A model generated the notes under the pieces. The model was not told the origin of the DNA and searched no databases. It saw nothing but the letters and a program-made list of their open reading frames with translations. From the IMG/VR virus record IMGVR_UViG_3300030104_006150, positions 1 through 23,579 of that record: a stretch of 23,579 nt of DNA; one strand, 5' to 3'. Origin of the DNA: a virus. The translations under genes were made by a program, and so were the position numbers. Within the stretch, counting starts at the first letter, position 1, and every line of letters starts with the position of its first letter. This document shows positions 16,088 to 22,682 of the stretch, in pieces.

Positions 16088-17608
16088 ATGTCAAATAGAT
16101 TTGCTGGATTGTTTCGCTTAGGTACGCCTGAAGATCTTATTAGTCAAGCCAAGGACTATACAGATTTTGATATTGATATTAATCAAGGCGTTCAAGCCCG
16201 ATGGGATGCTGAGCTAAATGAAAAAGCACTTCGGACTCCTATTGTTGATAGAGATGAACTTAGTCAAGCTTGGATGAATCTTCAAGGCGAATCACGAGAT
16301 CTGCTTAATGATCCAGGTGACTATCGTGGTATAACCCATGGTACTGAAGTCGCTTTCCCAGATGAAATCAACGACTTAAGGAATCAACAAATGATTGAAT
16401 TTGATAATGACTTTGAACGTTCACGTCATCGCTGGCGTACACATCCTGCCTTAAAAGATTTAGAGCAAGTTCCTAACTATTTTCAAATAGAAAACGATCG
16501 CTGGCAGTCAAAAGGCAAAGCACCTGATGACCTTGACTTACTTAATAATTATGCAAGAAGGATAAAGCAGTATCCTCCCGCTTACTTTGAAGGCTCAGCA
16601 GGTAGAGAGTTTAATGCAGATATGGTCGATCAATGGCGTAATAGAAAATTGTTAGAAATTGAACCTACAATGAATCCTCGTGATCCGAGGGTGCTGAATA
16701 GTCAACAAGCAAGAAGAGATAGTCAAGCTCAGATGCGTAAATTTATAGATAATATGAATAATCCTAAACCTCAAGCTATTCCTGATCAACTACCATCCAC
16801 AGTTGAGTTACCTAAAAGTCTTAGAAATCTAGATGCTATGAAAGGAGATATAAGAGCTATAAGTGATGAATCGAGTAAGTTAATGCAGGAATTAGGGATT
16901 CCTCCAGATACTCAACCTACTGATATGCGTCGTATAAGTGAGGAGGCAGGCCAATTGTTAGAAGATCTTGGTGGACCGCGTACAAACGTTGAGTATTTCC
17001 GTGATGGGCGTGTAATTCGACCTAGAACACCTACCACTGAATCGCTTCTAAGAGATCTAGATCAGATTCCAGCACCTAAGCCAGCAACTACTCCTAATAC
17101 ACCTACTACCCAGCCGCGTATTGTTCGTAAGGGTCCAGGTACAGCGCTTACCAACATACCTAAAGGTTTAGGCGTTGAAGTCGCAGCCGACGCTGCTTTA
17201 CAGTTTGCTGCAGGCGAATCACCAGAACAATCTATCTATGGAGCATTCACTAATTTAATTCCACAAGGCGGTCCTGTTGCCAATACAGAACTACCTCTTG
17301 TAATTGGTGGACGCGAGTATCAAAAGACTAATGAACCTAGTAGAGTCATTGGGCCTGATGGTAAAGCTTATGGGCTACAAATCAAAAACGGTGAATATGA
17401 AGTTGTAGATTATGGCCGAGGCGCTGCAGGTGGCAGACCAATTTATTCTGACTTTACTGATTTGGTTGGAGCTATTGGCAACGCGACTGAACAGCGTATT
17501 AGGGGCAATATGCCTCCTCCAGATAAAGATGATAAAGTTTTACGTAATGAAGGACGTTACATTTTAGATGCACTGTGGAACGGCAAGGTTCCATATGTTA
17601 GTAGATAA
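16088..17608 (+). CDS. Large unknown protein (506 aa), possibly virion-associated
   Basis: ATG at 16088. The first half (MSNRFAGLFRLGTPEDLISQ onward) is hydrophilic and rich in Asp, Arg, Gln and Pro with no catalytic motif; residues about 210-350 are Pro/Thr-rich and probably disordered (TPTTESLLRDLDQI, TPNTPTTQPRI). The C-terminal 140 residues are more ordered, with GPGTALTNIPKGLGVEVAAD and VIGPDGKAYGLQIKNGEYEV. There is no signal peptide or membrane segment. Its size and composition would suit an internal virion or ejection-type protein, but it lies on the plus strand among accessory genes and I cannot name a family. Confidence 0.6.
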   Translation: MSNRFAGLFRLGTPEDLISQAKDYTDFDIDINQGVQARWDAELNEKALRTPIVDRDELSQAWMNLQGESRDLLNDPGDYRGITHGTEVAFPDEINDLRNQQMIEFDNDFERSRHRWRTHPALKDLEQVPNYFQIENDRWQSKGKAPDDLDLLNNYARRIKQYPPAYFEGSAGREFNADMVDQWRNRKLLEIEPTMNPRDPRVLNSQQARRDSQAQMRKFIDNMNNPKPQAIPDQLPSTVELPKSLRNLDAMKGDIRAISDESSKLMQELGIPPDTQPTDMRRISEEAGQLLEDLGGPRTNVEYFRDGRVIRPRTPTTESLLRDLDQIPAPKPATTPNTPTTQPRIVRKGPGTALTNIPKGLGVEVAADAALQFAAGESPEQSIYGAFTNLIPQGGPVANTELPLVIGGREYQKTNEPSRVIGPDGKAYGLQIKNGEYEVVDYGRGAAGGRPIYSDFTDLVGAIGNATEQRIRGNMPPPDKDDKVLRNEGRYILDALWNGKVPYVSR

Positions 17609-17610
17609 AC

Positions 17611-17626
17611 ATATACAATATAAGTA
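17611..17626 (+). promoter_or_regulatory. Possible host-type promoter -10 before the riboswitch
   Basis: TATACAAT at 17612-17619 resembles a sigma70 -10 element (TACAAT at 17614-17619). Transcription would start near 17626, just before the riboswitch-like RNA. No clear -35 is seen. Confidence 0.35.
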
Positions 17627-17630
17627 AGTG

Positions 17631-17681
17631 CGTTGAACCTTTAGCTAGGTCGCAAGTAACCCTTGAGGGGGCGAAGCAACG
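17631..17681 (+). promoter_or_regulatory. Glutamine riboswitch-like RNA (glnA / downstream-peptide class)
   Basis: The 51 bases fold like the cyanobacterial glutamine riboswitch: P1 CGTTG (17631-17635) with CAACG (17677-17681), P2 ACCT with AGGT (17637-17640/17647-17650), the E-loop-like strand GCAAGTAA at 17652-17659, P3 CCC with GGG (17660-17662/17667-17669, loop TTGA), and the closing strand GCGAAG before CAACG. The known Synechococcus aptamer has GGAAGUAA and UGAAGCAACG at these places; here one G of the first is C. It lies 31 bases before a small-protein ATG, exactly the downstream-peptide arrangement, and would sense L-glutamine to control that gene. Match is from memory of the consensus, not a covariance search. 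Confidence 0.75.
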
Positions 17682-17712
17682 GGAATTCATTCACACTTTT
17701 GAGGACAACCAA

Positions 17713-17883
17713 ATGACTAGCGTAACCGTGCAAGGGCTTCTATCAGCTCGCCGTAAGGAGCTGCGTTCTAAAGTAGAGCGCGAGCATCATCAGAAAAATG
17801 AGATGCAAGTAGTGAGTTTCATCAGAGAAGACAAAGCTGGTAGATGCTACACATATCGCGGCGTAGAGTACTGCTATCAGTGA
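17713..17883 (+). CDS. Small DUF4278-like protein under the riboswitch (56 aa)
   Basis: ATG at 17713 follows TTTGAGGA (Shine-Dalgarno GAGGA at 17701-17705, 7 bases before the ATG). The product starts MTSVTVQGLLSARRKELRSK, a basic amphipathic helix, and ends GRCYTYRGVEYCYQ, which matches the TYRGVxY signature of the small cyanobacterial DUF4278 family. Its codons are richer in G+C than its neighbours, hinting at recent transfer from a host. Glutamine riboswitches of this class precede small peptides in picocyanobacteria, some linked to nitrogen control; whether this one acts on glutamine synthetase or anything else is unknown. Confidence 0.75.
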   Translation: MTSVTVQGLLSARRKELRSKVEREHHQKNEMQVVSFIREDKAGRCYTYRGVEYCYQ

Positions 17884-17890
17884 AATACTT

Positions 17891-17921
17891 TTGCCGCTAA
17901 TTGCATAATTGCTCCTATAAT
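17891..17921 (+). promoter_or_regulatory. Sigma70-type promoter
   Basis: A perfect TATAAT at 17916-17921 has TTGCCG at 17891-17896 upstream (19-base spacer). It would start transcription near 17928, 30 bases before the ATG of the next gene. Confidence 0.55.
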
Positions 17922-17927
17922 ATTTCT

Positions 17928-17942
17928 AGCAGGACCCCTGCT
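17928..17942 (+). other. Hairpin at the predicted mRNA 5' end
   Basis: AGCAGG-ACC-CCTGCT is a perfect 6-bp stem with a 3-base loop located where the promoter at 17916 predicts the transcript start. No T-run follows, so it is more likely a 5' stabilising stem than a terminator. Confidence 0.4.
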
Positions 17943-17958
17943 CTGAATATATGTAATT

Positions 17959-18315
17959 ATGTTTTTTAATTCAATTGTGGCAATAGCTTTTGGAACTATT
18001 GTCAATACTCCATCAGTATTGCCACAGGTTCACGAATCAAATCGGTATCCTGCTACAGACTTTGAGCTTTATTGTAATAGTAATATGCAATCTAATCTCA
18101 TGGCTGTACTTGAAGATAATGCTGGTGTAGCTACTGCATTCTTCCGTGATGGGCAAGTGGTAGGTATCCCAGAGAAAGGAATGAAAGCTCAAGTACTAGG
18201 TGTTTGGCATACTGGTCCAACACCTGATGACATTACTATCACTCCACACGATGGATTTGTAAGCGTGATTTATGATCTTGAAAGCAAGAAATGTGATTAC
18301 CACTTTACTAAGTGA
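17959..18315 (+). CDS. Putative exported unknown protein (118 aa)
   Basis: The N-terminus MFFNSIVAIAFGTIVNTPSV is hydrophobic and could be a signal peptide or anchor, though it lacks a clear positive n-region. The rest (FELYCNSNMQSNLMAVLED, then FRDGQVVGIPEKGMK, ITITPHDGFVSVIYDLESK) looks like a small beta-rich domain with two cysteines that could form a disulphide in the periplasm. No family recognised. It has its own TATAAT promoter and is followed by another promoter, so it is expressed independently, as expected of a moron-type accessory gene. Confidence 0.6.
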   Translation: MFFNSIVAIAFGTIVNTPSVLPQVHESNRYPATDFELYCNSNMQSNLMAVLEDNAGVATAFFRDGQVVGIPEKGMKAQVLGVWHTGPTPDDITITPHDGFVSVIYDLESKKCDYHFTK

Positions 18316-21698: not shown

Positions 21699-21816
21699 CT
21701 ACGCTAACTACACTTGTTTTCTATATACCTATTATTTATATAGTACGCTCCCCTCTATACCTTTTAAAATAAACAGTATATAGGAGAGTGCGTAGTGAGC
21801 GTAGTGAGCGTAGTCA
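21699..21816. repeat. Tandem 9-bp repeats and matching inverted copy beside the integrase
   Basis: GCGTAGTGA occurs at 21790-21798 and 21799-21807, with GCGTAGTCA at 21808-21816 (the last three bases are the integrase stop). An inverted near-copy, CTACGCTAACTAC, is at 21699-21711 and matches the reverse of 21792-21804 except one base. The spacer 21661-21813 between integrase and membrane-protein gene thus has a palindromic plan; it may hold integrase arm sites, an operator or a terminator. A minus-strand promoter for the gene at 21660 should also lie here (AT-rich GGTATAAAT). Confidence 0.55.
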
Positions 21817-22605
21817 GTGATGCGCGAATTTATAAATCTCTTTCTTAAGTAAGTGCATTCCGGTTCTTCCGTACCTTGCAGTGACACTTTTTTTTGCATG
21901 TCCTGTGAGTATATCAAGCATATATTCTTCAGTTTCATTGTCTCTGCATTGTGTATGGAATGCATGTCGTAATGAATGAGCAGCTTCACCTGGGGGTAGT
22001 CCTAAGCGATCACCCATTTCCCAGCTCCATTTATGTCCATGATTTCCTTTTGCTTTAGTCATTACAAAGCGATCAATATAATTGAAGCAAGAAGGATGAA
22101 TGGGTACTTTCCTAACTGAAGCATCATTCTTGAGCATCCTATTAGGTTGATGCACAAAATTGAAGTAAGGGATTTTTGCATTCATTACAATGTTCTTTGG
22201 ATCTAATCCGGCAATCTCGCCAATCCTTGCTCCGCTGTACCAAAGGAAACGGAACCAAGGGTGCTCGTGGTATTCCTCCCAGAACTCCCAAGGCCTGTAC
22301 TCAGGATCACGCTCTTTTTTCTCTAAGCCATCATCCCCGTATTCCCATACGTTTTTTCCTTCGATTTTTTCCCAGCGTAAAGCTTTGGTCCATATAGCTT
22401 TGCAATATCCCATCCGTGTCACAACAGTGCTCTCTGAAAGCTCCTGCAATGACTGGATTCTGTAACGCTCTACCGCTGCTTTGTTGATTGATTCAACAGG
22501 CAAGTGGGCAATTGGTTTGATTGATTTGTCCCAACAAGCAAAGGTGCTTGGCCTTAACTTTGGATACAGGACTTTTAGCTCTTGAACGAGATCAGATACT
22601 TTCAT
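21814..22605 (-). CDS. int: Tyrosine recombinase (phage integrase)
   Basis: The 263-aa product has the catalytic set of tyrosine recombinases: R127 in SGARIGEIAGLD, H210xxR213 in HSLRHAFH, H236 in LTGHAKKS and the nucleophile Y245 in TARYGR; a Lys near 166 (SVRKVPIH) fits the beta-hairpin lysine. The N-terminal 100 residues are a SAM-like core-binding domain. ATG at 22605 (MKVSDLVQEL) is preferred over TTG at 22626. About 80 bases upstream is a tRNA-Ser 3' end on the same strand, the usual attP arrangement. It should carry out site-specific integration into the host tRNA gene. Confidence 0.95.
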   Translation of the reverse strand: MKVSDLVQELKVLYPKLRPSTFACWDKSIKPIAHLPVESINKAAVERYRIQSLQELSESTVVTRMGYCKAIWTKALRWEKIEGKNVWEYGDDGLEKKERDPEYRPWEFWEEYHEHPWFRFLWYSGARIGEIAGLDPKNIVMNAKIPYFNFVHQPNRMLKNDASVRKVPIHPSCFNYIDRFVMTKAKGNHGHKWSWEMGDRLGLPPGEAAHSLRHAFHTQCRDNETEEYMLDILTGHAKKSVTARYGRTGMHLLKKEIYKFAHH

Positions 22606-22682
22606 GTTTTGTGGGGTTATAAGCAACGCCTATCGTTAGTCTATAGACAAGAGCTAAAAAGTGCAGCCCTATGTGTGAAAAA

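What the first reader, a model, noticed from the sequence alone, without database searches (positions are those of the whole stretch)
17631..17883. Phage-carried glutamine riboswitch controlling a DUF4278-like peptide
The spacer folds into the P1/P2/P3 plan of the glutamine aptamer with near-consensus GCAAGTAA and GCGAAGCAACG strands, followed by a Shine-Dalgarno and a 56-aa gene ending in TYRGVEY. This lets the phage sense host nitrogen status and adjust a host-like small protein. One conserved G is replaced by C, so affinity or specificity may be altered.
Basis: partly seen in the sequence, partly recalled or inferred. Interest (0 to 1): 0.78.

Follow-up and report, generated by a model that had tools for sequence, protein, structure and literature searches.

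The report
Phage glutamine riboswitch, swapped tertiary pair
A cyanophage-like virus carries an RNA switch of the known glutamine-sensing kind in front of a small protein gene, and the base that looked like damage is one half of a compensated swap seen in dozens of phage switches and in no cyanobacterial copy that could be read here.

Summary
Window 17629-17685 matches the Rfam glutamine-I (glnA) aptamer at 34.6 bits (gathering cut-off 35), and close relatives with the same leader pass it. The 84-base leader is identical in a second phage contig whose downstream gene has diverged at 45% of synonymous sites, so both leader and 56-aa ORF are under selection. Phage glutamine riboswitches, and this aptamer before DUF4278 genes in cyanobacteria, are already published; that part is not new. 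The idea that the G-to-C change weakens or redirects the switch is not supported: that base (C17653) forms the long-range 'linchpin' pair capping P1, and its partner changed too (G17682). Well-folded phage aptamers: 83 C..G, 89 G..C, 1 G..U, no C with anything but G. All 91 first-pass readable cyanobacterial aptamers are G..C. C-G is the pair that glutamine-II riboswitches use, so glutamine binding is probably kept. In most leaders the partner base also opens the hairpin that hides the ribosome site, (G,C,G) in one type and (C,G,C) in the other, suggesting an ON switch that hands one base between two partners. The window's own expression platform differs and is less clear. Ligand binding is untested.

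The parts
17614..17619 (+). -10-like hexamer TACAAT just upstream of the aptamer; candidate promoter with start at the aptamer's 5' end
   Evidence: 90 of 92 C-G type phage leaders have TANANT within 22 nt upstream, mostly 7-11 nt away; 30 of 90 G-C type leaders, at scattered distances. The consensus promoter scan found none here.
17626..17630 (+). AAGUG, possible 5' strand of a helix below P1 (with CACUU 17694-17698)
   Evidence: present in the window and sister leaders with this platform, invariant, so without covariation; part of the minimum-energy fold. Inferred.
17629..17685 (+). glutamine-I (glnA) riboswitch aptamer, C-G linchpin sub-type
   Evidence: RF01739, 34.6 bits, model 1-53; leader 84/84 identical to L001
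17631..17635 (+). P1 5' strand CGUUG (3' strand CAACG 17677-17681)
   Evidence: alignment; P1 fifth pair C-G or G-C across phages
17637..17650 (+). P2 hairpin ACCU..AGGU
   Evidence: P2 differs in sequence but stays paired in sister loci
17651..17658 (+). junction J2/3 CGCAAGUA; C17653 is the base called 'conserved G replaced by C' (RF01739 position 25, G23 of S. elongatus)
   Evidence: linchpin role from PMC11477058
17659..17672 (+). P3 hairpin ACCCUUGAGGGGGC with an A.C mismatch at its base
   Evidence: alignment (mismatch flagged); the same base mismatch in L001, L108, L160, L177, L223, L245
17682..17682 (+). G17682, base after P1 (RF01739 position 50, C60 of S. elongatus); proposed linchpin partner of C17653
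   Evidence: C25..G50 in 83 of 83 well-folded C25 phage aptamers
17694..17698 (+). CACUU, possible 3' strand of the helix below P1
   Evidence: inferred
17701..17705 (+). Shine-Dalgarno GAGGA, 7 nt before the start codon
17713..17883 (+). 56-aa YRG-motif (DUF4278-like) small protein, ends CYTYRGVEYCYQ
   Evidence: purifying selection pN/pS 0.15-0.46 against five relatives; no Pfam hit

Best explanation
This is a phage-borne glutamine-I riboswitch of a sub-type with a swapped tertiary 'linchpin' pair. It most likely acts as a translational ON switch for a small YRG/DUF4278-like protein. When L-glutamine binds, junction base C17653 pairs with G17682 and caps P1; the region after P1 can then no longer take part in the fold that hides the Shine-Dalgarno, and the small protein is made when glutamine is plentiful. 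In most sister leaders the OFF fold is visible: position 50 is also the first base of a hairpin that contains the SD, so one base is shared between two partners. Shown here: the aptamer match, the 25/50 covariation, the SD hairpin in most relatives, and selection on the ORF. Inferred: glutamine as ligand, the ON direction (by analogy with Synechocystis gifB and the Prochlorococcus type-2 switch), the OFF fold in the window itself, and that the protein acts on host nitrogen metabolism.
For: RF01739 match of 34.6 bits over the whole model; same-platform relatives over the cut-off. Leader identical to L001 while the ORF diverges synonymously. In the first scan, which left the base after P1 open, G..C 90, G..U 2, C..G 22, C..A 1, and the last has no P2/P3; after the C-only scan, well-folded aptamers give C..G 83, G..C 89, G..U 1. 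Hosts: all 91 first-pass readable cyanobacterial aptamers G..C. SD hairpin starting at position 50: 67 of 84 C-G leaders and 68 of 97 G-C leaders have a stem of at least 4 bp, against shuffle means of 13.5 and 10.7; position 50's partner is C in 66/67 and G in 68/68; hosts 54 of 99 against 10.9, partner always G. The glutamine-II crystal structure has the same long-range C19:G41 pair, with the glutamine side chain stacked between C19 and G18, and a site 'virtually identical' to glutamine-I. Cyanobacterial glnA aptamers sit mainly before DUF4278 genes, and gifB and Prochlorococcus switches turn genes on with glutamine (PMC6316151).
Against: The window scores 0.4 bit under the Rfam cut-off, and an energy fold of its leader prefers a competing long hairpin (-18.5 against -14.4 kcal/mol with the aptamer forced; tertiary contacts and ligand are not modelled). 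The window's leader lacks the SD hairpin found in most relatives; a computed SD-blocking alternative (-15.5 kcal/mol) is not clearly favoured, and SD accessibility hardly changes when the aptamer is forced. The C-G sequences are related, so the 25/50 covariation may rest on few evolutionary events. No binding data.
Confidence: 0.78

Rival explanations
1. The swapped linchpin marks a ligand-specificity variant: the aptamer no longer senses glutamine but a related compound made during infection.
For: Base 25 (G23) stacks on the ligand side chain in glutamine-I (PMC11477058), and riboswitch variants with changed ligands are known in other classes (titles returned). In the sample the C-G type precedes almost only YRG genes, while G-C phage aptamers precede several unrelated small ORF families.
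Against: The other pocket bases named in the structures are unchanged (C1-G59, G22, C58 equivalents). Glutamine-II carries the same C-G pair, stacks glutamine on that C, and binds L-glutamine. YRG/DUF4278 genes are also the usual targets of the canonical glutamine aptamers in cyanobacteria.
Confidence: 0.08
2. The element is a decayed or repurposed aptamer: the leader is conserved for another reason (mRNA stability, start-site structure) and no longer switches.
For: Sub-threshold score, an A.C mismatch at the base of P3, and an energy fold that prefers another structure.
Against: 84/84 identity of the leader between two phages whose ORFs have diverged, compensated linchpin, and P2/P3 paired in relatives of different sequence.
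Confidence: 0.1
3. The switch works on transcription (attenuation) rather than translation.
For: The two modes cannot be told apart from the aptamer alone.
Against: No terminator-like site in 17540-17960; the start codon is 31 nt after P1 and most sister leaders put the SD inside a covarying hairpin.
Confidence: 0.04

Closest known systems
Glutamine-I riboswitch (glnA RNA, RF01739), e.g. S. elongatus glnA aptamer and Synechocystis gifB leader
   Same: three-way junction P1/P2/P3, CGUUSA..CGSAAGUA..GAAGSAACG core, long-range cap on P1, position before a small DUF4278-like gene, SD close to the aptamer
   Different: linchpin pair is C-G instead of G-C; score just under the Rfam cut-off; on a phage; the window's SD is not in the usual GCC..GGC type hairpin
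Glutamine-II riboswitch (Downstream-peptide, RF01704), e.g. Prochlorococcus RS01 (PDB 6QN3)
   Same: C-G long-range pair (C19:G41) followed by GGA; small peptide gene downstream
   Different: glutamine-II folds by a pseudoknot and has no P3 arm; the window has P3 and scores 14.9 against a cut-off of 33
Glutamine riboswitches reported in marine phages: OM43 phage Melnitz, Pelagibacter phage Mosig, Prochlorococcus phage AG-345-P14, cyanomyovirus S-CREM1
   Same: a glutamine riboswitch carried by a marine phage
   Different: there tied to tmRNA or to unspecified genes; no linchpin sub-type described in the passages read here
DUF4278 proteins: IF17 N-terminal part (gifB), PMM1846
   Same: small size, glutamine-riboswitch control, YRG-type motif
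   Different: the window protein has no Pfam hit and a basic N-terminal stretch before the YRG motif; function unknown

Membership tests
RF01739 glutamine-I riboswitch | covariance-model score at or above the gathering cut-off (35 bits) | tested here: inconclusive
   34.6 bits, full length; closest same-platform relatives 35.7 and 35.2
RF01739 glutamine-I riboswitch | P1, P2 and P3 around the junction with the CGUUSA / CGSAAGUA / GAAGSAACG core | tested here: met
   P3 has one A.C mismatch at its base
RF01739 glutamine-I riboswitch | long-range Watson-Crick linchpin between J2/3 and the base after P1 | tested here: met
   C17653/G17682; C..G in 83/83 well-folded C25 aptamers; orientation reversed relative to the canonical G-C
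RF01739 glutamine-I riboswitch | selective binding of L-glutamine | not testable with these tools
   needs in-line probing or ITC
RF01704 glutamine-II riboswitch | model score of at least 33 bits; pseudoknot, no P3 arm | tested here: not met
   14.9 bits; the window has a P3 hairpin
DUF4278 (PF14105) | Pfam score at or above the cut-off of 25.3 bits | tested here: not met
   no hit for the window protein; sister proteins 14-20 bits
DUF4278 (PF14105) | YRG motif in a small protein behind a glutamine aptamer | tested here: met
   TYRGVEY in the window and a YRG motif in 83 of 88 ORFs behind C-G pattern matches; four of the other five are structureless bacterial pattern hits

The most novel reading that the evidence does not exclude
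Phages carry their own sub-class of glutamine riboswitch, a structural bridge between glutamine-I (three-way junction) and glutamine-II (C-G cap). It is absent from cyanobacterial genomes, wired almost only to YRG proteins, and retuned in affinity or kinetics to glutamine levels in an infected cell.
Probability: 0.3. Interest if true: 0.65.

Novelty: new variant of a known kind. Interest (0 to 1): 0.5.

Why it matters
The natural swap of both partners gives covariation evidence, outside the crystal, for the long-range pair that caps P1 of the glutamine-I riboswitch. It also shows that glutamine-I tolerates the pair used by glutamine-II. The matching change in the SD hairpin points to how binding is passed to the ribosome site: one base changes partner. 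For phage biology it shows that glutamine-type control of YRG/DUF4278-like small proteins is widespread in marine phages, in a form not found in the cyanobacterial genomes searched, so the phages did not simply keep a recent host copy. The double-swap test is simple and decisive.

Tried and rejected
1) Glutamine-II membership: rejected (14.9 bits). 2) A lesion or altered affinity from the single G-to-C change: rejected as the default because the partner changed too. 3) Chance match: rejected by leader identity and relatives. 4) The SD hairpin of relatives as the window's platform: not present. An alternative 8-bp pairing GUUGAACCUU/GAGGACAAC was folded and is not favoured (-15.5 against -18.5 kcal/mol). 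5) DUF4278 by Pfam: no hit for the window protein. 6) Named phages with this peptide: tblastn with the window peptide found nothing convincing; sister peptides found YRG ORFs in hundreds of Synechococcus phages. 7) RF01704 in 146 genomes of the family of G223: nothing found, but nothing rang in the controls either, so uninformative. 8) Ren 2015, Klaehn 2018 and Ames 2011 are not held; their content was taken from reviews and from Huang 2019.

Full report
Observation. The spacer between the 506-aa ORF (16088-17608) and the 56-aa ORF (17713-17883) holds a glutamine-I aptamer. The default Rfam scan is empty, but the permissive scan of 17580-17960 matches RF01739 over its whole length at 34.6 bits, E 6e-6, against a cut-off of 35. 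Glutamine-II (RF01704) reaches only 14.9 bits.

More than chance. Seven IMG/VR loci encode the same peptide behind the same kind of leader. Between the window and L001 all 84 bases from the aptamer to the start codon are identical, while the ORFs differ at 45% of synonymous and 7% of non-synonymous sites. Both the RNA and the protein are therefore under constraint. Relatives with the same leader pass the Rfam cut-off (L160 35.7, L223 35.2) and other members of the sub-type score 44-52 bits.

The replaced G. The base in question (C17653, RF01739 position 25) corresponds to G23 of the S. elongatus aptamer, which forms a 'linchpin' Watson-Crick pair with C60 when glutamine binds (review PMC11477058). 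In RF01739 coordinates I place C60 at position 50, the base right after P1 (my notes and scripts call it base48); this mapping is inferred from the alignment. In the window that base is G17682. Among 115 distinct matches I found G..C 90, G..U 2, C..G 22 and C..A 1; the last has no P2 or P3. After a second scan for C at position 25, aptamers with simple P2 and P3 pairing give C..G 83, G..C 89, G..U 1 and no C with another base. Two tandem aptamers (L180, L215) are C..C and remain unexplained.

Hosts. The C-type pattern in 84,980 bacterial and archaeal species gave 32 hits: 29 without aptamer structure and three real ones, none in a photosynthetic cyanobacterium. The three sit in marine MAG contigs (L237, L245, L248) with phage-like YRG ORFs, so probably phage DNA in the bins. 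No match occurred in 390 genomes of the class of G293. RF01739 found matches in 71 of 386 genomes of the same phylum. Of 110 such loci fetched, 91 could be read by the first pattern and all were G..C; those readable only by a looser pattern also have GGAAGTA with C after P1. The strict pattern recovers 58 of the 110, so its sensitivity in hosts is about half. The C-G type is absent from cyanobacteria at this depth, not proven absent.

Why glutamine is still the likely ligand. In the glutamine-II crystal structure the equivalent long-range pair is C19:G41, the glutamine amide stacks between C19 and G18, and the site is described as virtually identical to glutamine-I, where the hydrogen bonds go to C1-G59, G22 O2' and C58 (PMC6698751). 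Those positions are unchanged here. The phage type therefore looks like a glutamine-I scaffold with a glutamine-II cap.

How it may switch. In 67 of 84 C-G leaders a stem of at least 4 bp starts exactly at position 50 and closes just before the start codon around the SD (typically GGAAAC..GGAGUUUCC-AAUG). In G-C phage leaders 68 of 97 do so (CACC..GGAGGGUG). Shuffled leaders give means of 13.5 and 10.7. The partner of position 50 is C in 66 of 67 and G in 68 of 68. In cyanobacterial leaders 54 of 99 have such a stem, all with G, against a shuffle mean of 10.9. So three positions change together, (G,C,G) against (C,G,C), as expected if one base is handed from the SD hairpin to the junction when glutamine binds. 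Host glutamine switches turn expression on (PMC6316151). The window and about ten relatives lack this hairpin. They share AAGUG before and CACUU after the aptamer, but energy folds do not single out an OFF state. For the window the switching step is inferred by analogy.

How many events. The C-G sequences are related. Within the YRG protein cluster both types occur (83 C-G, 13 G-C), and L202 and L168 are C-G members of a protein family otherwise behind G-C aptamers, so more than one swap or leader exchange is likely. The number is not established. The covariation counts sequences, not events.

Promoter. 90 of 92 C-G leaders have a -10-like TANANT just upstream, mostly 7-11 nt from the aptamer; G-C leaders have it in 30 of 90 at scattered distances. 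The window has TACAAT at 17614-17619.

Phage and protein. The record (23.6 kb) has ribonucleotide reductase subunits, ThyX, a primase/helicase, DNA polymerase I nearest to Synechococcus podoviruses S-CBP2 and S-CBP42 (45-46% identity), a cyanophage OMP-like protein and an integrase. A cyanophage is likely but the host is not shown. The 56-aa protein has no Pfam hit; its relatives give weak DUF4278 matches. In cyanobacteria DUF4278 covers the N-terminal part of GS inactivating factor IF17. A role in host nitrogen metabolism is a reasonable guess, no more.

Novelty. Phage glutamine riboswitches and glutamine aptamers before DUF4278 genes are published. I found no description of the swapped-linchpin sub-type or of the three-way change with the SD hairpin in the papers that could be read; the main structural and gifB papers are not held, so prior mention cannot be excluded.

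A side finding. In T4-like cyanophages a related aptamer seems to be split around a complete small gene; it is listed under things noticed and deserves its own study.

Noticed in passing
L369-L374, L376, L377, L379, L380 and IMG/VR loci from L381 on: In T4-like cyanophages (Kyanoviridae) a glutamine-type aptamer appears split around a whole gene: the start codon of a 53-64 aa ORF (T4-GC_430) lies in the 5' P2 strand (CGUUCAUCCCAUG) and its stop codon in the 3' half (CGCAAACGACUGAAGGAACGG), upstream of a YRG ORF. 75 of 81 distinct split forms have this nested ORF; P2 pair 4 is C-G in 60 and U-A in 14; 8 compact forms also exist.
   Followed up: partly
L369-L380: Most of those cyanomyoviruses carry an upstream minimal element CGUUCA-hairpin-CGCAAGUAAGUCGCGGAACGG. 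The elements in these loci score between glutamine-I and glutamine-II, mostly under both Rfam cut-offs, and have the C-G cap.
   Followed up: partly
L180 and L215: Tandem aptamers in which the first has C25 with C50 and the second A25 with G50; exceptions to the linchpin rule.
   Followed up: no
window 16088-17608: A 506-aa ORF without a significant family match lies directly before the riboswitch; in L001 the riboswitch appears to follow the 61-aa gene directly, so this ORF looks inserted or lost.
   Followed up: no
window 21814-22626 (-): Integrase-like protein on a contig with podovirus-like replication genes.
   Followed up: no
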